In this document: positions 47,912 through 57,006 of the stretch, piece by piece
Numbering within the stretch: the stretch's first letter is position 1
Layout: each line of letters begins with the position of its first letter
The notes under the pieces: generated by a model
What the model was told of the DNA's origin: nothing
Databases searched by the model: none
The model's input: only the letters and a program-made list of their open reading frames with translations
NCBI GenBank assembly: GCA_035284745.1
Contig: JAYKIL010000014.1
Span: 170,511 to 234,510 of the forward strand
DNA from: JAYKJB01 sp035284745 [NCBI: Candidatus Sericytochromatia bacterium]
GTDB taxonomy: Bacteria > Cyanobacteriota > Sericytochromatia > S15B-MN24
Length of the DNA: 64,000 bases
Direction of reading: 5' to 3'
Position numbers and translations under genes: made by a program

Positions 47912-49044
47912 ATGCTCTCCTGCAATCTCTCGCTGTTGAATCCCATCGAGACCAACCGTTCCGCCAAGAAAACTGACCACTCACGCTTGAAGCGTTCTTC
48001 AGCAAACCTTTCAGAATACCTCGAAATCCACTTTCGATCAAATACACTGGCCGAATGCCGCTCAAGGGCCTCAAGCAAGGACTCGACAGATTGCTTGTCA
48101 AAAAGGACGCCGGTTTTTCCCTCCAAGACCGTTTCTTTCGCCCCACCCCGGCCGAATGCGACCACGGGAACGCCGGCGGACATCGCCTCCACAGGGGCGA
48201 TACCGAAGTCTTCGATCCCGGGAAAAACAAACCCACGCGCCCCCGAAAAGTAGGTGCGTACTTCCTCATCCGAGCGCCGGCCGAGAAATTGAATATTTGG
48301 ACCGGCTTTGTGCTCAAGTGCCTGACGCTCTTTTCCATCACCGATGACCACCAAGGGCCACCCCAACCGGTTGAACGCCTCAACCACGAGGTCAACGCGC
48401 TTATAGGCAACCAGCCGACTGACCACGAGATAATAGTCGGAAGGTTGGCCGACTGACTTAAGCATTCTCACGGGTGGATAAATGACACGCGCCCGTCGGC
48501 GATAGTATTTTTCAATCCGCCTTTTCACGTAGTGCGAGATGGCCACAAATTCATCGACTCCTGCGCTCGAGAAAGTATCCCAGGCCCTCATGTAATGCAT
48601 GAGGAACGGTAACATCGCACGCTGAAAATTCGAGAGCGTCTCAACTTCGCGATATTCTTGATACATATCCCAAACATAACGCAGCGGGCTGTAACACATG
48701 CACACGTGATGACTGCCTGGTGCGGTGATCACCCCTTTGGCCACGGCGTGGCTACAACTGATCACCACGTCGAAACCGCGTAAATCCAGGGATTCCGCTG
48801 CACACGGAAACAAAGGGAAATAGCGCATGTAAGCGTCGGGGCCACCCGGAAATTGCTGCAAAAAGGTGGGCCGGATGTCCCACTCCCGCATCATGTCCGG
48901 CATTCGACTTTTTGAATAAACCGTCGTAAAAATCGGCGCATCCGGCAACATGGTTCGCAGGGTCTCAAGTACCCGTTCGGCTCCCCCGCCGCCGCCAGCT
49001 GTCGCCAAACCATCGTGAACGATCGCGATTCGCGGTTCTCGCAT
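47908..49044 (-). CDS. GT4-family glycosyltransferase
   Basis: A 378-aa GT-B-fold enzyme. N-terminal IVHDGLATAGGGGGAERV (about 7-24) and the C-terminal donor-binding EDFGIAPVEAMSAGVPVVA with the E-x7-E motif place it in the GT4 (RfaB/WcaL) family. ATG 49044 (SD GAGGAA, 7 nt) is chosen. It is likely a sugar transferase building the exopolysaccharide repeat. It is the first gene of the polysaccharide operon and is divergent from the TPR gene with a 105-bp spacer. Confidence 0.94.
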   Translation of the reverse strand: MREPRIAIVHDGLATAGGGGGAERVLETLRTMLPDAPIFTTVYSKSRMPDMMREWDIRPTFLQQFPGGPDAYMRYFPLFPCAAESLDLRGFDVVISCSHAVAKGVITAPGSHHVCMCYSPLRYVWDMYQEYREVETLSNFQRAMLPFLMHYMRAWDTFSSAGVDEFVAISHYVKRRIEKYYRRRARVIYPPVRMLKSVGQPSDYYLVVSRLVAYKRVDLVVEAFNRLGWPLVVIGDGKERQALEHKAGPNIQFLGRRSDEEVRTYFSGARGFVFPGIEDFGIAPVEAMSAGVPVVAFGRGGAKETVLEGKTGVLFDKQSVESLLEALERHSASVFDRKWISRYSERFAEERFKREWSVFLAERLVSMGFNSERLQESM

Positions 49045-49149
49045 TTCGTGATTCCTCGTGTGCAAAGCCCTCCCAATTTGAATAAACGAGGACTGCCATT
49101 GTCAGGGTATATTGCTGACGGGAGCGCTGCCAACCCTTCCGAGGTCTGC

Positions 49150-50094
49150 GTGCTAAGCAAATATCTCAAGACGATACTCAATGGGGGTGTACCCGAACGT
49201 GAGGTGCGTCCGCTCGAAGACGGCCTGAATGCCTTTGAAGCGGGTAAGCACGACGAATCCTTGCCATTGCTTCTGGAGGCATTAAAAGATGCGCCTCACA
49301 CCCTCGCCGCATTGGTTGCGGTGGGACGCATTTATCACACGCGTGGCACTGCCGACGAAGCGGTCAAATTCTTGCTGCGTGCGCTTGAATTGGATGGTCG
49401 CAATCCGCTTGTGAACTACCTCCTCGGGGAACTGGCGCTAAACGAAGGCAACGCCACGATGGCAGCCAAGTTTTTCGAAAAAGCCCTCAGTACAGACCCT
49501 GACTACACGGATGCGCATATTCGCCTGGGGATGGCCTATAGAGAACTAAAACAGCCTCAAGAGGCCATCAAGGCCTTTGAAAAGGCTATTTTCTTAGATC
49601 GTCAGGCCGTCGTTGCACGATTTCAACTGGCCCAGGTGTGCCTAGAGGTGAAAGATACCCGAAGGGCCTTGACCCAGCTCCATCTGGTCAAAGAGATACA
49701 CGGCGACTATCCCCCCGTATTCTTGCTGCAGGGTGAGATACAATTCGGACTTGGAGATTATCGTCAAGCGATTATAGAGTTAGAACGGGCCCTAGAACTC
49801 GGATTAGATGGGGCCCACGCACGAGAGCTTCTCGGACGAGCGAACGACCGGCTGGGCAACCGAGAAGGGGCCATCAAGGCCTACGTGGGCTGCCTCGAGC
49901 GCGAAAACCGTCCTCATATTCGCTTCCGGTTGGCTGAGATATTGGAAGAGTTGCGGAAATATAGCGCAGCGCAGGAGCATTACACAATATTGGTCGATGA
50001 TCGATCGTATGGTGATGCGGCGCAAGAGGCGCTCAAAAGAATCAAGCAGTTGCTGGCCGATATTGCGACCGAACTGGCCGGCGAAAGTTCTTGA
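49150..50094 (+). CDS. TPR-repeat protein
   Basis: A 314-aa soluble protein made of about eight TPR units from residue 30 to 300 (for example AAKFFEKALSTDPDYTDAHI, REGAIKAYVGCLERE-like). GTG 49150 has GAGG 5 nt upstream; earlier in-frame starts would overlap the divergent glycosyltransferase region. No signal peptide is seen. It probably binds partners in the polysaccharide machinery, but there is no direct evidence. It converges with the phosphatase gene. Confidence 0.9.
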   Translation: MLSKYLKTILNGGVPEREVRPLEDGLNAFEAGKHDESLPLLLEALKDAPHTLAALVAVGRIYHTRGTADEAVKFLLRALELDGRNPLVNYLLGELALNEGNATMAAKFFEKALSTDPDYTDAHIRLGMAYRELKQPQEAIKAFEKAIFLDRQAVVARFQLAQVCLEVKDTRRALTQLHLVKEIHGDYPPVFLLQGEIQFGLGDYRQAIIELERALELGLDGAHARELLGRANDRLGNREGAIKAYVGCLERENRPHIRFRLAEILEELRKYSAAQEHYTILVDDRSYGDAAQEALKRIKQLLADIATELAGESS

Positions 50095-50125: not shown

Positions 50126-52660
50126 CTACGATGCTGCGAGCCTCTTTAGAACCAACAGGGTGACGTCGTCCCTTGGCCCCCTATCTCCCACAAATCCCCT
50201 GAGGTCCTCTTCAATGGCCGTCAAAATCCCTGCGGCATCAAGGTGTGCCGACCGTTTGAGAACCGCTGACAACCGCTCTGTCTCGTATATATCCGGTTCT
50301 ATGAGCTTTTCATATGGTCCCCTGCGTGCCTCGGTGACACCATCGGTATAAAAAATGAGGACATCTCCTGGTGCCAGATTAATCCGCTGCGCCCGATAGT
50401 GGGTGGCTGCGCGCACACCGAGAGGAAATCCTGGGAGTGGCTCATACTCGACGACTGCCTCTCGATCAGCACGCCAATGCAGGGGAGGAAAATGTCCCGC
50501 GCAAGCGTACTCAAGTACGCCGCCCTTTTCCTCTAATAGTGCGTAAAGACAGGTCGTGTAGGACTTAACTTGCGCGTGCCGCGTCACAGAGAACAACAGT
50601 CGATTCAACGCCTCCAATGTGTCGACGACCGCAGGATTAGATTCAATCTGATTGTAAAGACAAGACTTGAGCATCGCGGTCGCCAGAGCGGCGGCAAATC
50701 CCTTCCCTGCGACATCAGCAACGGCCAACGCGATACGATTCCCTGAAAGCGAAACACAATCGAAATAATCTCCCGACGCTTCGTGGCACGGTATCGATGA
50801 CGCGGCAAATTGAAACCCGTCGACCGCCGGCAAAACGCGCGGCAGCATGGCCTCTTGTACTTCTCGAGCACGTCGAAGGTCCTGCTCGATTCTATCTTTG
50901 AACAACCTCGCCTCAACCAAAGAAGCCGTCTTGATGGCAGCCGCAAGTGGCAAACGGGTCGCCGCCAAAAGCGCACGATCGTCAAGCGAATACTCCTTAT
51001 CCGAGCGACGCGGCCCCAAAATTAAGAGTCCCACAACCTCCTCACTCAAAAGCAACGGTATCCGATAATGACGCCCGATGGCTGCCAAAGCAGACAAAGA
51101 CCCCGTACTGCCCGAACCTGGCTCATATTCGTTTTCAACAGCACCGCCAAAGCGCAACAACAACTCATCATCACCTCGAATGCGTAATTCTGGTAATGGA
51201 GCCTCCCCCCAAACAGCGTGCGGTCCGGCTGCGATTAAGGAATCTGCTCCAGGCTCCCGGGTCAAAATGTAAACAAAACGGGGTCCTAGCGCCTCATCAA
51301 TCAAGGCCAGAAAATCCTTTTGAAGGGTATGGACATCAATCGAAGACTGGGCTGCCTCCGTCACGCGGGCCACTATCGAACGAAAATCGTACGGGACCCG
51401 AGAAAATAAGCGATTCACGGCCCGGCTCACCGCATCACGCAAGGGCACAAATGACACCGCAATCATTGCCGTCACCAACGCACTTTCCCACGCCGTCCCT
51501 TGCAAACCTAGCGCTGAGGCGACCCAGCGAACCATCCCCGCTGCCGCAAAGTATCCACCCAGCAAAAATGAAGTCAATACCGCATAGGTCGTGGTTCGCT
51601 TAACAATGATATCGATGTCGAACATTCCGTGGCGCACGATGGCGTAACTCGCCGAGAGGGGAAAGACCACGAACAGCAGCGACGTGGCCGACAGAATGAC
51701 CGGTGAAGGCGGGAATCCAAAAACAAAAAGCGGCACGTTAGCAAGTAACGCATAGGGGAGATATGCGATTGCAATGCCAAGCAGAAGAACCTGTAATTGC
51801 GCCTTCTGGCGAACGTCCGCCGTCCATCGAGAGCGAATCAAAAACACGACAAGCCCGACCAACAGAACGAAATTCGCCCAGGCGGCAGAAATTACTTCCC
51901 CCCATTCCACCGCACGCGGTGCGATACCCACGTCGAAAAAAACCCACAGAATCGGGGCGAATAGAATCCCACTCAACAGGTAAGGAAGCATCCTCCCGGC
52001 AACCCTGCTCTCAAATGGGCCTGCGATAGACGGAAAGGTCAAGGCCATCGCAAGGGCACCGCTGGCATACAGCATGACGCTCGCGTAGTACCACAAAGGA
52101 TGAAACAAGTAGGTCCATTCAAAGTCGATATCGAGCAATCCGTAAATTGCCCACCCCACGCAGAAAATAAAATTTGACTGGGCGGCAGGATTCACGGGGC
52201 GTAGCCACAGCGCTGCAAATCCGAGCAAAGCCATCCCAAGCGGAAGCCCCAAACGCACCAGAAAGGCGCGCACGAAATCTGAAATACCAAATGGCTGCGT
52301 TTGCACGCTCACATCTATCGTGCGCCCTTCTCGCTGGCAGCGATATTTTACGAGGGTGGCGTGCGCAAGACTTCGCGCATACGCTTTGACTTCGACCCCT
52401 CGAGTCAGAGGAAGGCCGTCAGCCGCCAGAATGCGGTCTCCGGGCCTGAGACCGGCCTGAATCCCCGGTAGGTAGGACTCATTGGTCATCCAAACGGTGC
52501 CGACCCGGTTCACGCGAAAGCCCGGATACGTTTGCCCCATCTCGCCCCAACAGGCTGAAAATAAGACACCCCAAAGCAAAAAAACCGTCGCGAGCCCCAT
52601 CAAGGCAACCAGGCGCCACAGGCCTGATGCAAGAATTCGGGCCTTCTCAGGGCGGCTCAA
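50126..52660 (-). CDS. Membrane receptor with PDZ, TM, GAF and SpoIIE-type PP2C phosphatase domains
   Basis: About 844 aa (TTG 52660, GAGG 8 nt upstream; GTG 52693 also possible and would overlap the upstream gene). N-terminal TM (about 17-38), a PDZ-like extracellular domain (about 45-115; LPGIQAGLRPGDRILAADG), about seven further TM segments (about 130-375), a GAF-like domain (about 425-590), a coiled segment (RIEQDLRRAREVQEAMLP) and a C-terminal SpoIIE/PP2C phosphatase (about 610-840) with ASGDYFD, VADVAGKGFAAALAT and GDVLIFYTDGVTEAR. Metal-binding Asp residues are intact, so Ser/Thr dephosphorylation is expected. The N-terminal half resembles the layout of ComP sensors. Likely a signal receptor acting on an anti-anti-sigma factor. 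Confidence 0.9.
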   Translation of the reverse strand: MSRPEKARILASGLWRLVALMGLATVFLLWGVLFSACWGEMGQTYPGFRVNRVGTVWMTNESYLPGIQAGLRPGDRILAADGLPLTRGVEVKAYARSLAHATLVKYRCQREGRTIDVSVQTQPFGISDFVRAFLVRLGLPLGMALLGFAALWLRPVNPAAQSNFIFCVGWAIYGLLDIDFEWTYLFHPLWYYASVMLYASGALAMALTFPSIAGPFESRVAGRMLPYLLSGILFAPILWVFFDVGIAPRAVEWGEVISAAWANFVLLVGLVVFLIRSRWTADVRQKAQLQVLLLGIAIAYLPYALLANVPLFVFGFPPSPVILSATSLLFVVFPLSASYAIVRHGMFDIDIIVKRTTTYAVLTSFLLGGYFAAAGMVRWVASALGLQGTAWESALVTAMIAVSFVPLRDAVSRAVNRLFSRVPYDFRSIVARVTEAAQSSIDVHTLQKDFLALIDEALGPRFVYILTREPGADSLIAAGPHAVWGEAPLPELRIRGDDELLLRFGGAVENEYEPGSGSTGSLSALAAIGRHYRIPLLLSEEVVGLLILGPRRSDKEYSLDDRALLAATRLPLAAAIKTASLVEARLFKDRIEQDLRRAREVQEAMLPRVLPAVDGFQFAASSIPCHEASGDYFDCVSLSGNRIALAVADVAGKGFAAALATAMLKSCLYNQIESNPAVVDTLEALNRLLFSVTRHAQVKSYTTCLYALLEEKGGVLEYACAGHFPPLHWRADREAVVEYEPLPGFPLGVRAATHYRAQRINLAPGDVLIFYTDGVTEARRGPYEKLIEPDIYETERLSAVLKRSAHLDAAGILTAIEEDLRGFVGDRGPRDDVTLLVLKRLAAS

Positions 52661-52670
52661 ACGGGGCACC

Positions 52671-53621
52671 TCAGACAGCAAGTGGATCAACACGGATGAT
52701 GGCCGTGTCCAATACCGGGCGAATCAATGATGCGTACTCTCTTTGTCCCAGTTGGGCGGCTAGACCCATCGCTTCCTGGTGGAGGGCGGATATGCGCCAT
52801 TGCGTATATTCCAAAGCTCCGCTCGCTCTCACCACCCGTCGCAATCGCTCCTGAAAACTGCGGGATAATGGCAGAGGAACACCGAGCATTTCCGCCACTT
52901 GGGGGTCGAGATCTTTCGCAACCATCAATGGGAGCGTCACCTTTAACTGGGCGAGATCCGAATGTGGCCCGAAACACAAATAGGCCTCCAGATCGCTTGC
53001 CGCCTGATACATCTTGCCCAGCAAGACGCCAAACTCCCACCACTCATTAAGGTTCGGCACTCGGCACACCGCAGGAGCGAGACACAACACAGCGGCCAAG
53101 GCACCCCCTGCTTTTTGGGCTCCAATCTCCAAAATCCTGCTCTCATCCCAAACCGTATTTGCTGACGCACACAGATCGCGATGCTGTCCAGCCACCAAGG
53201 TCATCCCAGCACGAGCAAAGGTATCTGCCCAGACGGCGCGCACCTCCGGCTCAACATTGGTCTGTGCGAGACAACGGGCCTGGGCAGACAAGAGAAACAA
53301 CCCGACATTAACCGCATCGCGCCAACCCCAATGCCCCCAACCAGGAATCGCTGCAAGATCATCATCCTGCGCATCATCCACAATGTCGGCGGCGCAATGA
53401 TAGAGGATTGACGCGGCAACCAAATCATCGCACAGGACCGGATTCAATCCTAAATAACTCGCCGTGCGTCTCGGCAATTCCGGAACACACCACAAAGGCG
53501 CGCGGCGATAGAGCAACAATTTTCGCTCCAACACGCACGACAGTTGGCCCTTCAATTCAGGCGTGAGGTCTGGATGAAGCAGAACCTCGCGCACGCGGCG
53601 TGCGGCAGACAGAAAACTCAA
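52671..53621 (-). CDS. ComQ/polyprenyl-synthase-like isoprenoid transferase
   Basis: A 316-aa class I isoprenoid enzyme by pattern. The first Asp-rich motif DDAQD is at residues 82-86 in ADIVDDAQDDDL, followed by a conserved NVGLFLL, a GQHRDL block near 145-150 and QKAGG (Lys170). The second Asp-rich motif is eroded to QAASDLEAY (205-213), so it is not a standard chain-elongating synthase. This degenerate second motif is reminiscent of ComQ, which prenylates a peptide pheromone. TTG start with AAGGT upstream. It begins 8 nt after the metalloprotease stop and its end is close to or overlaps the receptor-phosphatase start, forming one operon. Confidence 0.8.
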   Translation of the reverse strand: MSFLSAARRVREVLLHPDLTPELKGQLSCVLERKLLLYRRAPLWCVPELPRRTASYLGLNPVLCDDLVAASILYHCAADIVDDAQDDDLAAIPGWGHWGWRDAVNVGLFLLSAQARCLAQTNVEPEVRAVWADTFARAGMTLVAGQHRDLCASANTVWDESRILEIGAQKAGGALAAVLCLAPAVCRVPNLNEWWEFGVLLGKMYQAASDLEAYLCFGPHSDLAQLKVTLPLMVAKDLDPQVAEMLGVPLPLSRSFQERLRRVVRASGALEYTQWRISALHQEAMGLAAQLGQREYASLIRPVLDTAIIRVDPLAV

Positions 53622-53629
53622 CGCCGACC

Positions 53630-55624
53630 TTAGCCTCCCGGGGGAACCTTTATGCCATTAATTTCGACAATACCAAGGCCAGAGAACACCTCCGCCATCC
53701 GTTTGGGGTCCGTGCGCAGGGTGCCAATCGAGGCGCGTAGAGTCGCTTCATCCAAGCGTTCTAAGTTGGCCTCAAACATTTCCTGCAAATCCCCCCCGCC
53801 CAATAAAGGAACCTTATCATAGGCAATCAGGCGGTCCAACGTATCAGCAAACACCGACAAACTCATCCTGGTCTGGGCGTCCTTCATCGCCTCTTGTAAG
53901 GGACGTGGAAGATTTTCCGCGATGGGGGACAGGGCCGCCACAGGGTCGGTCTTTAACGACGAGCGAAAATTTGCATCCTCCAATAACAGACGCCCAAAGC
54001 GTCTGACGGCATCTATTTCAATGGCACGGTATCCTTGCTCTGTTGCGCTGGAAAAACTCATCGTGCCACCCTGCATTTTCTGGACAATTTCAAGCCGTTT
54101 TTGTTGATCGATAAATTGTGATTGTTCCGCAGGTGATAACCGCTCCCAAGTGCCCGCCAGTGCCCTCGAAGGATCCTGTGTAAACGCACTAATGAAGGCC
54201 AAATCTTGCGCAGCGACCCCCTTCTGAATGCGCATAAACACTTCTCGCAAAGGAGGCAATTCCACCCCGCGTTCTTTCGATTGGAGGCCAGAACGCGCTT
54301 GTTCTCCCAGTGCTCCCACGTCCAAGGCAACACCATTTGCTTTTGTAATTCGTTCGAGTGAATCCTGCGAAATCCCTGACTGCGCGAGGGCGGTCGCAAT
54401 TTGCTGAGGATCCTGACCGGCAGATTGCAACATCCGCGCAACGTCAGCAGGAGCAAAGCGACGAGAGTTCGCGTTCAGGTACAAAAACTTATCGGGCGCC
54501 TTACGCAGCAAAAGCTCAGGGTCCATATAAAAAGCCCGAAAACTCTCGGCAAAATCTTCCAGCGGATTCACCATCGAATACCCCATCGCCTCTACACCAA
54601 ACACCTCAAAGATCGCTTCACGCAGCGTGCGCTTCACTTTGAGGGTTTGTTCAAACTCTGAACGAAGTTCCGGATCCTGAATCTCGGCCAAAGTTTTCGC
54701 GATCGCTTGCGGGGTCAAATCCTCCGTAAAATTCTCATAGACAAAATTGTTGGTGCGACCTGGGCGAACGCCAGGGTTCAGGGCACGAACCGTCCCTGCC
54801 TCATCAAAACCGAACGTCTCGCGACCCTCCGCATCCTTCCAGGCAGACAATTTAGACCAATCGCGCATACTTCCCAACTCGGTTTGAGCGCCAAATTGAA
54901 TCTGGTGTCCTATCTCGTGTACCAAGACCTCTTGCATCCGAGAGGCTTGGGCGTCGCCCACTTCTATCACCCGTTTGCGATACTCGGCCAAGGCGTGAGG
55001 AAACCACGCCCGCAACATCAATCCGAGCGGGGCGGTGAGAGCAAACTTCTCGAGCACTTCGGCCGCACGGTAACCTGTTCGGCCGAGCACCCCTCGGCCC
55101 GCCTCCACTTCCACAACCGCAGCGCCGTCAGTCTGTCGATTAAAATGAGCCTCATCAAAGCGAGAAACCGACACCCGTCGAAACGTCACGCCCTGCACCA
55201 GAGCGCGATCCGAGGGGGTCAATGCATCCAAAACCCTAAAGGCAATGGCCGCATCCGAGATTCGAAAAAGTTCCACCGGCTCGAAAACAACGCCTTCTCC
55301 CCCCACAGTTTTGCTTGCTTTGGCTAACAGACGCTTGGACAACTGCAGTGTGGCGGTCCGCGCATTGGCTGAAAGGTCTTTCGATATGTCTCTCAAAACC
55401 TGCTCGGGCAGGGCTTTCAATGCGGCCTGATCCCGCGCCGACAATCGTTGAAAAGCCGGCGGAAATACAAAGGGCGTCGCGGCACCACTCCCCAGGGCCA
55501 CGTTATCTTGCCCTACCCCCACAATCGCAGCCAATGCCTCCAAATTAATGGGGCCTGTGGCGCGCTGTCCAGGCAAATGACCGGTTCCGGGGACTGAACC
55601 CGTATTTTTTGAAATATGACTCAC
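53630..55624 (-). CDS. Large HExxH metalloprotease with anthrax-lethal-factor-like (ATLF) features
   Basis: A 664-aa protein. GTG 55624 has AGGAGG 4-5 nt upstream (ATG 55657 would add 11 residues). No signal peptide is evident. HEIGH is at residues 236-240 in VLVHEIGHQIQFG. Some 115 residues later EDFAESFRAFYMDPE (about 356-370) has the second Glu pattern of the ATLF/M34 gluzincins. The C-terminal half is a long helical, Gln/Leu/Arg-rich region with no domain I can name. It is probably a cytoplasmic or non-classically exported protease. It is the first gene of the operon with the isoprenoid and receptor-phosphatase genes, 146 nt after coaBC. Confidence 0.75.
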   Translation of the reverse strand: MSHISKNTGSVPGTGHLPGQRATGPINLEALAAIVGVGQDNVALGSGAATPFVFPPAFQRLSARDQAALKALPEQVLRDISKDLSANARTATLQLSKRLLAKASKTVGGEGVVFEPVELFRISDAAIAFRVLDALTPSDRALVQGVTFRRVSVSRFDEAHFNRQTDGAAVVEVEAGRGVLGRTGYRAAEVLEKFALTAPLGLMLRAWFPHALAEYRKRVIEVGDAQASRMQEVLVHEIGHQIQFGAQTELGSMRDWSKLSAWKDAEGRETFGFDEAGTVRALNPGVRPGRTNNFVYENFTEDLTPQAIAKTLAEIQDPELRSEFEQTLKVKRTLREAIFEVFGVEAMGYSMVNPLEDFAESFRAFYMDPELLLRKAPDKFLYLNANSRRFAPADVARMLQSAGQDPQQIATALAQSGISQDSLERITKANGVALDVGALGEQARSGLQSKERGVELPPLREVFMRIQKGVAAQDLAFISAFTQDPSRALAGTWERLSPAEQSQFIDQQKRLEIVQKMQGGTMSFSSATEQGYRAIEIDAVRRFGRLLLEDANFRSSLKTDPVAALSPIAENLPRPLQEAMKDAQTRMSLSVFADTLDRLIAYDKVPLLGGGDLQEMFEANLERLDEATLRASIGTLRTDPKRMAEVFSGLGIVEINGIKVPPGG

Positions 55625-55803
55625 AAAACCTCCTGGCACGACACACTGAGAATGCATCGAGCAGCCTGGCCGTGATTTTCACGCCACCCAATGGGCTCGA
55701 CAAATATTGTGGTTGAGCCCTGAACCGGATGAACCGGTCCACGCACTCAAGAGCAGACTCCTGGTTATATACCCACGCCGTTAAGAGGGCCCCGCGCCAA
55801 GCC

Positions 55804-57006
55804 TTAACGTGTCGTGCGTTGCAAAAACAGGTCCCATATTTTCTCAGCGAGATCTCTTTTGGGAAGTTCCGGCCATTCGACAACAGGCCCTTCCCGCTCC
55901 ACGATGAGAATGTGATTCATATCGCTGTCAAAGCCGACTCCCAAACGACTGACATCATTGCCAATGATCCAATCGGCCTTTTTCTTCAGCAGCTTCTCGC
56001 GCGCGGCTCTTTCAGGATTTTCCGTTTCCGCCGCAAAACCGATCAGAAACTGTTTCCCTTTTCGTTGCCCAAGCTCCGCGAGAATGTCCGGATTGGGAAC
56101 AAGTTCCAACCTCCAGGTTTCGCCATCTTTTTTTCGCTTTGAGGTGGCAGCCTGCTGCGGTCGGTAATCAGCCACTGCCGCCGTCATCACCACGACATCT
56201 TGCTCATCGAAAACGGAATGAACCGCCGCCTGCATCTCCAGTGCTGTGTTGACAGACCGCAGTCGGACGCCGACAGGAGCAGTTGAGGGCTGTGTCGTCA
56301 CCAGCGTGACATCCGCACCGCGTCTCGCTGCGGCATCAGCGATCGCGTGTCCCATCCGCCCACTCGAGCGGTTACCCAGAAAACGCACCGGATCAAGCGG
56401 TTCGCGGGTGCCACCCGCCGTGACCAAAACCCTGACTCCCTTGAGAGTGTCTTTCGTGGACGTGAACGCCAAAAGCCAGTTCTCTAACTCTTCCGGCTCA
56501 GGGAGGCGGCCGATCCCCTCATCGCCACAAGCCATTTGACCCGTCCCCGGGGGAATCAAGTGAACACCGCGACGCCTGAGCGTCTCAATATTTTCCTGCG
56601 TCGCCGGATGGGCCCACATCCGAGGATTCATCGCAGGCGCAACAACGAGGGGGGCGTGACCGGCCAAGGCGGTCGCACACACAACGTCATCGGCCAAGCC
56701 TGCTGCCAACCTCGCCAGTGTGTTGGCTGTCGCAGGGGCAATCAAAAAGACATCCGCTGTCTTTCCGATTTCGATGTGACCAATGCCCCGCGAGGCGGGG
56801 AAATCAAAATCTTCACCTGACGACCACATATTGGCGTGAACAGGTCGGGCCGTTATCGCCTCAAACGTGAGAGGGGCGACAAATTTAGTCGCCGACTCTG
56901 TCATTAAGACTTGGACACCCCAGCCACGCTTCCGCATCCGGGATGCCAATTCAATGGTTTTGTAAGCAGAAATTCCGCCGGTAACCCCCAAGAGCAGACT
57001 GGGCAA
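55804..57006 (-). CDS. coaBC: Bifunctional phosphopantothenoylcysteine decarboxylase / synthetase
   Basis: CoaBC (EC 4.1.1.36 and 6.3.2.5), 400 aa, for coenzyme A synthesis. The CoaC half has GVTGGISAYKTIELASR (flavin site), APAMNPRMW and GQMACGDEGIGRLPE with the catalytic Cys; the CoaB half has VTAGGTREPLDPVRFLGN-type CTP-binding segment. TTG start with GAGGCC at 4-5 nt spacing. It follows rpoZ by 16 nt in a conserved cluster. Confidence 0.96.
   Translation of the reverse strand: MPSLLLGVTGGISAYKTIELASRMRKRGWGVQVLMTESATKFVAPLTFEAITARPVHANMWSSGEDFDFPASRGIGHIEIGKTADVFLIAPATANTLARLAAGLADDVVCATALAGHAPLVVAPAMNPRMWAHPATQENIETLRRRGVHLIPPGTGQMACGDEGIGRLPEPEELENWLLAFTSTKDTLKGVRVLVTAGGTREPLDPVRFLGNRSSGRMGHAIADAAARRGADVTLVTTQPSTAPVGVRLRSVNTALEMQAAVHSVFDEQDVVVMTAAVADYRPQQAATSKRKKDGETWRLELVPNPDILAELGQRKGKQFLIGFAAETENPERAAREKLLKKKADWIIGNDVSRLGVGFDSDMNHILIVEREGPVVEWPELPKRDLAEKIWDLFLQRTTR

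What the first reader, a model, noticed from the sequence alone, without database searches (positions are those of the whole stretch)
50126..55624. ComQ-like isoprenoid enzyme next to a ComP-like receptor ending in a SpoIIE phosphatase, with a protease
Three tightly packed genes: HExxH protease (53630-55624), isoprenoid transferase (52671-53621) with intact DDAQD but eroded second Asp motif, and a membrane receptor (50126-52660) with TM, extracellular PDZ-like region, about seven TM segments, GAF and PP2C. In Bacillus, ComQ prenylates a peptide that is sensed by ComP, whose N-terminus also carries TM segments and a PDZ-like stretch (family knowledge, from memory). Here the kinase output is replaced by a phosphatase, and a protease is added. 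I infer a prenylated-signal or prenylated-lipid sensing system with a partner-switching output. No small ComX-like gene is seen between them, so the signal might be encoded elsewhere or not be a peptide.
Basis: partly seen in the sequence, partly recalled or inferred. Interest (0 to 1): 0.7.

Follow-up and report, generated by a model that had tools for sequence, protein, structure and literature searches.

The report
ComQ–ComP-like prenyl signalling, phosphatase output
A three-gene module in uncultured relatives of cyanobacteria pairs an enzyme resembling the one that lipidates Bacillus quorum-sensing peptides with a receptor built like the matching Bacillus sensor, but with a phosphatase in place of the kinase and an extra protease-like protein.

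Summary
In detail: three co-directional, nearly abutting genes encode an HExxH protein (PRO), a polyprenyl-synthase-fold protein (PRE) and a TM-PDZ-multi-TM-GAF-SpoIIE receptor (REC). In the 18-genome class of the nearest genome found, nine genomes carry the contiguous PRO-PRE-REC trio. Two show no PRO, no sensor region at the threshold used and no ComQ-type PRE among matches examined. PRE matches the published ComQ pattern: intact DDxxD, and a second motif that lost its first Asp but keeps the second. It shares a loop deletion with ComQ and falls with real ComQs, against all but one ordinary synthase, in a tree without the motif columns. The REC sensor aligns with ComP; reversed and unrelated membrane controls fail. 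Output is an intact SpoIIE-type phosphatase; homologues sit beside STAS and RsbW-like genes, so partner switching is likely. No ComX-like gene fits between the genes; a weak search of the class found none. PRO carries a RiPP-leader-like (Os1348/NHLP) segment behind an LF/PPEP-like catalytic fold. Best reading: a ComQ/ComP-like circuit sensing a prenylated product, rewired to partner switching. Substrate and signal are not shown. It is not a comQXPA member: ComX, kinase and ComA are missing.

The parts
53630..55657 (-). PRO: HExxH protein, 675 aa from ATG 55657 (alternative GTG start 55624); no signal peptide seen by eye (no tool run)
   Evidence: ORF; 59% identical to the G030 relative; catalytic-part model resembles LF/PPEP-3/MtfA-type proteins, Z 8.1-9.6
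54905..54919 (-). PRO HEIGH motif (residues 247-251)
   Evidence: H247 and E248 in 15 of 15 aligned members; last His replaced by N in one, L112
54542..54559 (-). PRO EDFAES motif (residues 367-372), presumed third zinc ligand E371
   Evidence: D368, A370, E371, S372 in 15 of 15; role inferred from gluzincins (recalled)
53900..54004 (-). PRO Os1348/NHLP RiPP-leader-like segment (residues 552-586)
   Evidence: NF038399 E 1.8e-4 and TIGR04509 0.0029 in the window; 5 of 8 members match each at E<=0.1, best 3.9e-7 and 1.1e-5; window below curated cut-offs
52671..53621 (-). PRE: ComQ-like polyprenyl-synthase-fold protein, 316 aa
   Evidence: PF00348 3.4e-9; hhalign to ComQ E 1.2e-14 (3 rows), 2.6e-18 (4 rows) against 7.9e-12 (IspA-like, 3 rows) and 7.3e-13 (HepT-like, 3 rows); trees
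53364..53378 (-). PRE FARM, DDAQD (residues 82-86)
   Evidence: DDxxD in 20 of 21 PRE rows, DCVED in G057
52983..52997 (-). PRE pseudo-SARM, SDLEA (residues 209-213): in the window only the second Asp is kept
   Evidence: first Asp absent and second present in 21 of 21 PRE rows; fifth Asp kept in 7 of 21; ComQ rows
50126..52660 (-). REC: receptor phosphatase, 844 aa
52295..52540 (-). REC PDZ-like domain (residues 41-122), extracytoplasmic by analogy with ComP
   Evidence: Pfam PDZ 1.3e-4; model; aligned to ComP PDZ
51407..52294 (-). REC membrane helices (residues 123-418) with a conserved FPxSxxYAI...FDI stretch
   Evidence: model; ComP alignment; conserved columns
50996..51385 (-). REC GAF-like domain (residues 426-555)
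   Evidence: model; GAF Pfam matches over cut-off in homologues L249, L251 and L263
50129..50830 (-). REC SpoIIE/RsbU-type PP2C domain (residues 611-844)
   Evidence: PF07228; metal-site Asp motifs kept in 17 of 17 rows; Foldseek best 3ke6 (RsbU-RsbW domains of Rv1364c) E 1e-12

Best explanation
The locus is a ComQ/ComP-type signalling circuit with a partner-switching output. PRE most likely transfers a prenyl group from an allylic diphosphate bound at the intact FARM onto a peptide or protein acceptor rather than onto IPP. The prenylated product, exported or presented outside, is sensed by the PDZ and membrane part of REC. REC then changes the activity of its SpoIIE-type phosphatase, which dephosphorylates a STAS anti-anti-sigma protein encoded elsewhere. 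PRO is a dedicated partner: it either matures the acceptor by proteolysis or itself carries it, since it has a RiPP-leader-like segment. Shown: homology, motifs, conservation of the set, domain order, an intact phosphatase site. Inferred: prenyl transfer, acceptor, ligand, export, STAS target.
For: PRE matches the ComQ pattern of PMC5331326 (passages read): FARM in 20 of 21 rows, first SARM Asp lost and second kept in 21 of 21, and the loop after SARM missing as in ComQ. PRE and ComQ share one side of the tree: 100/99, 99/92 with FARM and SARM columns removed. The ComQ profile is nearer PRE (1.2e-14) than IspA-like (2e-7) or HepT-like (5.6e-10) sets. REC sensor against five ComP-type kinases: E 6.7e-13 over 314 columns; reversed 0.06; three unrelated proteins 0.2-0.58. 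A PRE profile search of 50 genomes picked up ComQ beside ComP in Aneurinibacillus, not known to me before, and the ComQs. Conservation in the class. Output: STAS genes confirmed by Pfam next to four REC-PP2C paralogues (L262, L265, L266, L272); STAS, RsbW-like, PRE run in G030 (L111); RsbW-like and STAS beside a REC-like phosphatase in G407 (L257). Peptide link: Os1348-like segment in PRO; stand-alone Os1348-like peptides with radical-SAM-like genes beside three REC paralogues.
Against: No room for a ComX gene in the operon; PF05952 over cut-off in 0 of 18 genomes, but it also missed cut-off in the B. subtilis control, so that search is weak. The window's first pseudo-SARM residue is S; the literature says N or G is crucial in ComQ. 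Seven of 21 PRE keep the fifth SARM Asp and the G057 PRE has lost one FARM Asp. In whole-genome searches ComQ scores no better against PRE than ordinary synthases do. The sensor occurs with kinase output and no PRE nearby in four Deltaproteobacterial/Dadabacterial loci, and in 25 of 25 further class sensor genes whose shown neighbours had no PRE or PRO, one with a GGDEF and one with a kinase output. Eight of 20 ComQ-type PRE genes have no REC beside them, two of these cut by contig ends where REC would lie. PRO tails lack a conserved Trp or Cys. One PRO (L112) has HExxN. No STAS or RsbW domain in ten window neighbours tested.
Confidence: 0.5

Rival explanations
1. PRE makes or modifies a small isoprenoid (terpenoid or polyprenyl lipid) and REC senses that lipid or the state of the polyprenyl pool; PRO acts independently.
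For: PRE belongs to the PF00348 family; no peptide gene was found; 7 of 21 PRE keep the fifth SARM Asp; REC is a polytopic membrane protein.
Against: The first Asp of the second motif is gone in 21 of 21 rows, a pattern that marks ComQ peptide prenyltransferases.
Confidence: 0.25
2. PRE and PRO are structural or regulatory partners of REC without enzymatic signal production, and REC reports envelope stress.
For: One PRO has lost the last His of HExxH and one PRE a FARM Asp; one REC reads as two ORFs (L105); PRO-REC and PRE-REC pairs occur without the third gene in view.
Against: FARM kept in 20 of 21 PRE and H247, E248, E371 in 15 of 15 PRO, so catalytic residues are under constraint.
Confidence: 0.15
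3. An ordinary RsbU-like phosphatase sensor with two unrelated neighbours kept by chance.
For: 25 further sensor genes of the class have other neighbours.
Against: Contiguous trio in nine other genomes, down to 21% (PRO), 24% (PRE) and 27% (REC) identity to the window among the aligned trio members; the families are weak or missing together in G039 and G051.
Confidence: 0.05

Closest known systems
ComQ tryptophan prenyltransferase (Bacillus)
   Same: PF00348 family, intact FARM, second motif without its first Asp but with the second, missing loop after SARM, gene beside a TM-PDZ-multi-TM receptor
   Different: First pseudo-SARM residue S in the window (S, N, T or G across relatives); about 18% identity in the profile alignment; no comX between; activity untested; not in Firmicutes
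ComP histidine kinase
   Same: TM1, PDZ-like first loop, further TM helices with a matching conserved stretch, linker before the output domain
   Different: Histidine kinase replaced by a SpoIIE-type phosphatase; no ComA
RsbU/SpoIIE/RssB/SiaA PP2C phosphatases
   Same: Same phosphatase domain with intact metal site; homologues next to STAS and RsbW-like genes
   Different: Sensor is ComP-type; no STAS or RsbW domain in the window neighbours tested
PPEP / lethal-factor-like / MtfA zinc proteins
   Same: HExxH plus downstream Glu motif; model similar to PPEP-3, LF and 3khi (Z 8.1-9.6)
   Different: Below Pfam cut-offs; carries a long helical C-terminal part with an Os1348/NHLP-like segment
PalQ (Paenibacillus alvei)
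   Same: Peptide prenyltransferase of the same superfamily as ComQ, acting on a RiPP (passages read)
   Different: Not compared by sequence here; no receptor pair mentioned in the passages read

Membership tests
ComQ | Polyprenyl-synthase family | tested here: met
   PF00348 36.7 bits over cut-off 27
ComQ | Intact FARM DDxxD | tested here: met
   DDAQD in the window; DDxxD in 20 of 21 PRE rows
ComQ | Pseudo-SARM keeping only the second Asp | tested here: met
   SDLEA in the window; fifth Asp kept in 7 of 21 PRE rows and in some ComQ rows used here; definition from PMC5331326
ComQ | N or G at the first pseudo-SARM position | tested here: not met
   S in the window; N or G in 7 of 21 PRE rows
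ComQ | Prenylates Trp of ComX | not testable with these tools
   needs biochemistry
ComP | TM1-PDZ-multi-TM sensor | tested here: met
   hhalign E 6.7e-13 with failing reversed and unrelated controls; model
ComP | Histidine kinase output | tested here: not met
   SpoIIE phosphatase instead
comQXPA locus | comX between comQ and comP | tested here: not met
   10-nt gap between PRE and REC
comQXPA locus | comA response regulator next to comP | tested here: not met
   the next gene is a TPR protein on the other strand
Partner-switching phosphatase (RsbU/SpoIIE type) | PF07228 domain with metal-site Asp | tested here: met
Partner-switching phosphatase (RsbU/SpoIIE type) | STAS and RsbW partners | tested here: inconclusive
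   none in ten window neighbours; present beside homologues in L111, L257, L262, L265, L266, L272
ATLF / PPEP-like gluzincin (PRO) | HExxH motif | tested here: met
   HEIGH; 14 of 15 members keep both His
ATLF / PPEP-like gluzincin (PRO) | Pfam ATLF score over cut-off | tested here: not met
   17.3 bits against 27.4
ATLF / PPEP-like gluzincin (PRO) | Same fold | tested here: inconclusive
   Z 8.1-9.6 by VIA-align, against 3.8 for the first row outside the group, but Foldseek E >= 0.43 and model mean pLDDT 72.4
Os1348/NHLP RiPP precursor (PRO segment) | NF038399 score over curated cut-off | tested here: not met
   21.6 bits against 40; none over cut-off in 18 genomes
Os1348/NHLP RiPP precursor (PRO segment) | Recurrent match in the family | tested here: met
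   5 of 8 members at E<=0.1, best 3.9e-7

The most novel reading that the evidence does not exclude
PRO is a protease fused to its own RiPP-like precursor: PRE prenylates a part of PRO recognised through the leader-like segment, PRO releases or presents the product, and the PDZ domain of REC reads the modified piece. This would be a peptide-pheromone circuit in the cyanobacterial phylum with precursor and protease in one chain and partner switching instead of a two-component output, alongside a sister version in which a radical-SAM/Os1348 peptide cassette lies beside the same type of receptor.
Probability: 0.18. Interest if true: 0.9.

Novelty: new variant of a known kind. Interest (0 to 1): 0.7.

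Why it matters
A published census of 2,620 complete and 6,970 draft prokaryotic genomes found no comQXPA-like locus outside Firmicutes (PMC4008528, abstract and passages). A ComQ-like enzyme beside a ComP-like sensor in a class of the cyanobacterial phylum would place this pairing outside Firmicutes and show one sensor design plugged into different outputs. It would also give these uncultured relatives of cyanobacteria a candidate cell-cell signalling system that can be tested by expressing three genes.

Tried and rejected
Direct scan for PRE relatives in genome contigs: 21 pattern matches, no relative, so a housekeeping gene (ProRS) was used to find kin. PRO against ComX by profile comparison: no match. 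ComX family PF05952 in 18 genomes: seven genomes with a weak match, none over cut-off. Small ORFs beside ten PRE genes outside the trio runs: no shared ComX-like peptide; L115 and L116 share a protein upstream of PRE, DUF192 by Pfam in L116, and L117 and L182 share an upstream ORF of 118 and 155 aa (58% over 79 aa; no Pfam match for L117), not explained. Conserved aromatic tail on PRO: Trp in the last 15 residues of 2 of 15, Cys in 2 of 15. Anti-phage defence: no PADLOC match for the three proteins. Encapsulin cargo polyprenyl transferase: NCBIfam match of 39.8 bits against cut-off 450, not pursued. Foldseek of PRO gave nothing at E<=0.001. Five block-shuffled ComP controls kept some signal (E 7.5e-5 to 2.7e-3), so part of the REC-ComP score is local, probably PDZ. 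One tree was first shown with wrong labels (two ComQ rows called ordinary) and relabelled. Left out of trees: three 760-aa Bacilli proteins and two fragments from both trees, two fused 650-670 aa proteins from the second. Not examined: many of the weaker PRE-profile matches, among them one of three in G039 and G051.
Full report
What is there. The window carries three - strand genes with gaps of 8 and 10 nt: PRO (HExxH), PRE (polyprenyl-synthase fold) and REC (TM-PDZ-TMs-GAF-SpoIIE). They lie between coaBC (55804-57006, -) and a TPR gene on the other strand (49015-50094, +).

Where it comes from. No genome is held for the window. A sample of 386 genomes from the phylum of a Gastranaerophilales genome gave 17 with a PRE match, the best being G030 at E 1.9e-80. 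Fifteen of the 17 are in G030's class; the other two are G105 and G145. A 20-kb piece of G030 keeps much of the window's gene order, at 52-78% protein identity for the shared genes apart from PRE at 47% (one 51% match to an antisense ORF set aside). The class of G030 has 18 genomes in the collection. I take it to be the non-photosynthetic cyanobacterial class Sericytochromatia; that name is a guess from phylum and class size, not a tool result.

Conservation. In that class the contiguous PRO-PRE-REC run is seen in nine genomes: G030, G048, G025, G045, G017, G054, G011, G033 and G005. In G033 and G005 REC is cut by the contig end, in G054 REC reads as two ORFs, and in G045 the PRE frame was missed by my ORF list and is taken. 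PRE beside REC without PRO in view: G036, G057 and a second G005 place; the last two lie at contig edges. PRO beside REC without PRE: G033, G011, G020, G054. PRO beside a PP2C protein without the sensor part: G048, G030. I count 20 ComQ-type PRE genes: the 18 matches at E<=1e-42 and the two G005 genes. Twelve have REC beside them. The other eight are in G020, G033, G011, G030, G008, G042, G022 and G014; in G011 and G030 the contig ends where REC would lie. In G008, G022, G042 and G014 PRE, REC and a PRO-like gene (partial matches, E 1e-26 to 1e-30, in frames of 835-877 aa) stand at separate places, and in G036 PRO is separate. Profile searches of the 18 genomes: PRE 18 of 18 at E<=0.001, but in G039 and G051 the two matches examined, of three, are ordinary synthases; PRO 16 of 18, G057 only at 1.9e-4, none in G039 and G051; REC 18 of 18 at 1e-60, but in G039 and G051 only over the phosphatase part, and weaker matches were not listed. 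The sample is small and related, so this is a pattern, not a statistic.

PRE is ComQ-like. Real comQXP loci were taken from Metabacillus malikii (L213), Bacillus sp. SJS (L214) and B. swezeyi (L215, comP cut): comX over the Pfam cut-off in all three, kinase domains checked for the ComP of L213. PMC5331326 (passages read) states that ComQ keeps FARM and only the second Asp of SARM, with N or G before it crucial. Among 21 PRE rows the FARM is DDxxD in 20 (DCVED in G057), the first SARM Asp is replaced by S, N, T or G in 21, the second is kept in 21, and the fifth is kept in 7; some ComQ rows used here also keep the fifth. PRE and ComQ both lack the loop after SARM. Trees put PRE and ComQ on one side: 100/99 with 53 rows, that side also holding four long-branch rows from G105, G145, G036 and G020; 99/92 with 62 rows after FARM and SARM columns were dropped, that side also holding the G105 and G145 rows and one long-branch row with an ordinary second motif from G424 (the six ComQ rows are four different proteins). 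Profile comparison ranks ComQ above IspA-like and HepT-like sets for PRE, and PRE above both for ComQ. In whole-genome searches ComQ scores no better against PRE than good ordinary synthases, so the case rests on motifs, loop, trees and profile comparison.

REC is ComP-like at the front and RsbU-like at the back. Sensor against five ComP-type kinases: probability 97.8, E 6.7e-13 over 314 columns; reversed 0.06; three unrelated proteins 0.2-0.58; five block-shuffled ComP profiles 7.5e-5 to 2.7e-3. The same sensor with HisKA/HATPase output occurs in one Dadabacterium and three Deltaproteobacteria, and no PRE was seen in the stretches fetched. In the class, 25 further sensor genes were looked at with their neighbours (19 from the stretches fetched plus six fetched earlier); none showed PRE or PRO among the neighbours listed; 15 have the phosphatase and ten do not. 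Two of these ten were tested: one carries a GGDEF domain, one a histidine kinase. So the sensor design is broader than the prenyl link and is joined to at least three kinds of output. The phosphatase site is intact in 17 of 17 rows, and the best fold match of the REC model is the RsbU-RsbW part of Rv1364c.

Output. STAS (PF01740 4.7e-19) and RsbW-like (PF13581 2.4e-28) genes immediately precede a PRE paralogue in G030, and an RsbW-like gene and STAS lie beside a REC-like phosphatase in G407. STAS genes (PF01740, E 1.4e-18 to 1.9e-15) lie directly beside four REC-PP2C paralogues in G054 (two), G020 and G011. In the window, ten neighbouring genes gave no STAS or HATPase match.

PRO. The catalytic part of the model (mean pLDDT 72.4) resembles lethal-factor-like, PPEP-3 and MtfA-like zinc proteins at Z 8.1-9.6, while Foldseek alone gave E >= 0.43; this is a fold likeness, not a function. 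Five of eight PRO members match each of two Os1348/NHLP RiPP models (best 3.9e-7) and two match TIGR03793; the window's matches are well below curated cut-offs. In 18 genomes the Os1348 model at E<=0.01 gave 16 places, none over cut-off: six inside PRO genes, six in small stand-alone peptides that all end in Cys, four others; one of 14 control genomes rang. Five of the six stand-alone peptides have a frame with CxxxCxxC next to them or overlapping them in my ORF list; radical SAM was confirmed for three of them (L189; L297, L298). Three of the cassettes (L189, L190, L270) end convergently at a REC-PP2C gene; two (L297, L298, short contigs) do not. This associates receptors of this type with RiPP-like peptides and supports, but does not prove, a peptide ligand for the trio.

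Literature. Searches. PMC4008528 (abstract and passages) reports no comQXPA-like locus outside Firmicutes in its census. Searches for Sericytochromatia with quorum sensing (three papers by listing), Sericytochromatia with SpoIIE (none) and ComQ with Cyanobacteria terms (five papers by listing) showed no description of this system; the library holds open-licence papers only. PMC9620489 (passages) describes ComP with ten TM helices and a PDZ-like first loop. PMC10853753 (passages) describes PalQ. A listed paper on HEXXH enzymes acting in RiPP biosynthesis (PMC12636437, listing and start of abstract only) is a reminder that HExxH need not mean peptidase.

What the check changed. The statement on the second motif is now 'first Asp lost, second kept' for the family, since 7 of 21 rows keep the fifth; the G057 FARM loss is told; STAS and radical-SAM neighbours were confirmed by Pfam; a GGDEF output was found.

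Verdict. Real, conserved and unusual: a ComQ-like enzyme and a ComP-like sensor wired to a phosphatase, with a protease-like, RiPP-leader-bearing partner. Function is inferred.

Noticed in passing
L189:3448-5957, L190:8419-10904, L270:3875-6257; also L297:2137-4510, L298:842-3429, L295:5563-5820: Os1348-like peptides of about 70-85 aa ending in Cys, five of six with a radical-SAM-like gene next to them (confirmed for three) and a further gene; in three genomes the cassette ends convergently at a PDZ-TM-PP2C receptor. A possible new RiPP cassette of this class.
   Followed up: partly
L111:14618-16434: STAS, RsbW-like kinase and a ComQ-like PRE paralogue in one run in G030.
   Followed up: partly
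L262:3497-3853, L265:8504-8857, L266:122-487, L272:5566-5925: STAS genes immediately beside REC-PP2C paralogues.
   Followed up: yes
L258:5494-7866 and L263:6070-8553: The same sensor part joined to a GGDEF domain (L258) and to a histidine kinase (L263) within the class.
   Followed up: partly
L248:1664-4114, L249:5447-7996, L250:1427-3940, L251:2151-4565: The same sensor with histidine kinase output in a Dadabacterium and three Deltaproteobacteria, no PRE in the stretches fetched.
   Followed up: partly
L118:9313-11328, L120:8560-10518: 650-670 aa proteins with a PRE-like N-terminal half and an unknown second half.
   Followed up: no
L114:6708-9667: In G105 a lone PRE-like gene is followed by a protein with a CdiA-CT RNase A-like domain.
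   Followed up: no
window 53630-55657 and relatives: Some PRO proteins share a low-complexity N-terminal TGxL motif, sometimes repeated.
   Followed up: no
L207, L208, L209: Open frames of 791-816 aa in three Bacilli with a polyprenyl synthetase domain towards the C-terminal end.
   Followed up: no
L117:8980-9336 and L182:5518-5985: An upstream ORF shared by two genomes before PRE (58% over 79 aa), no Pfam match for the one tested; may or may not be a gene.
   Followed up: no
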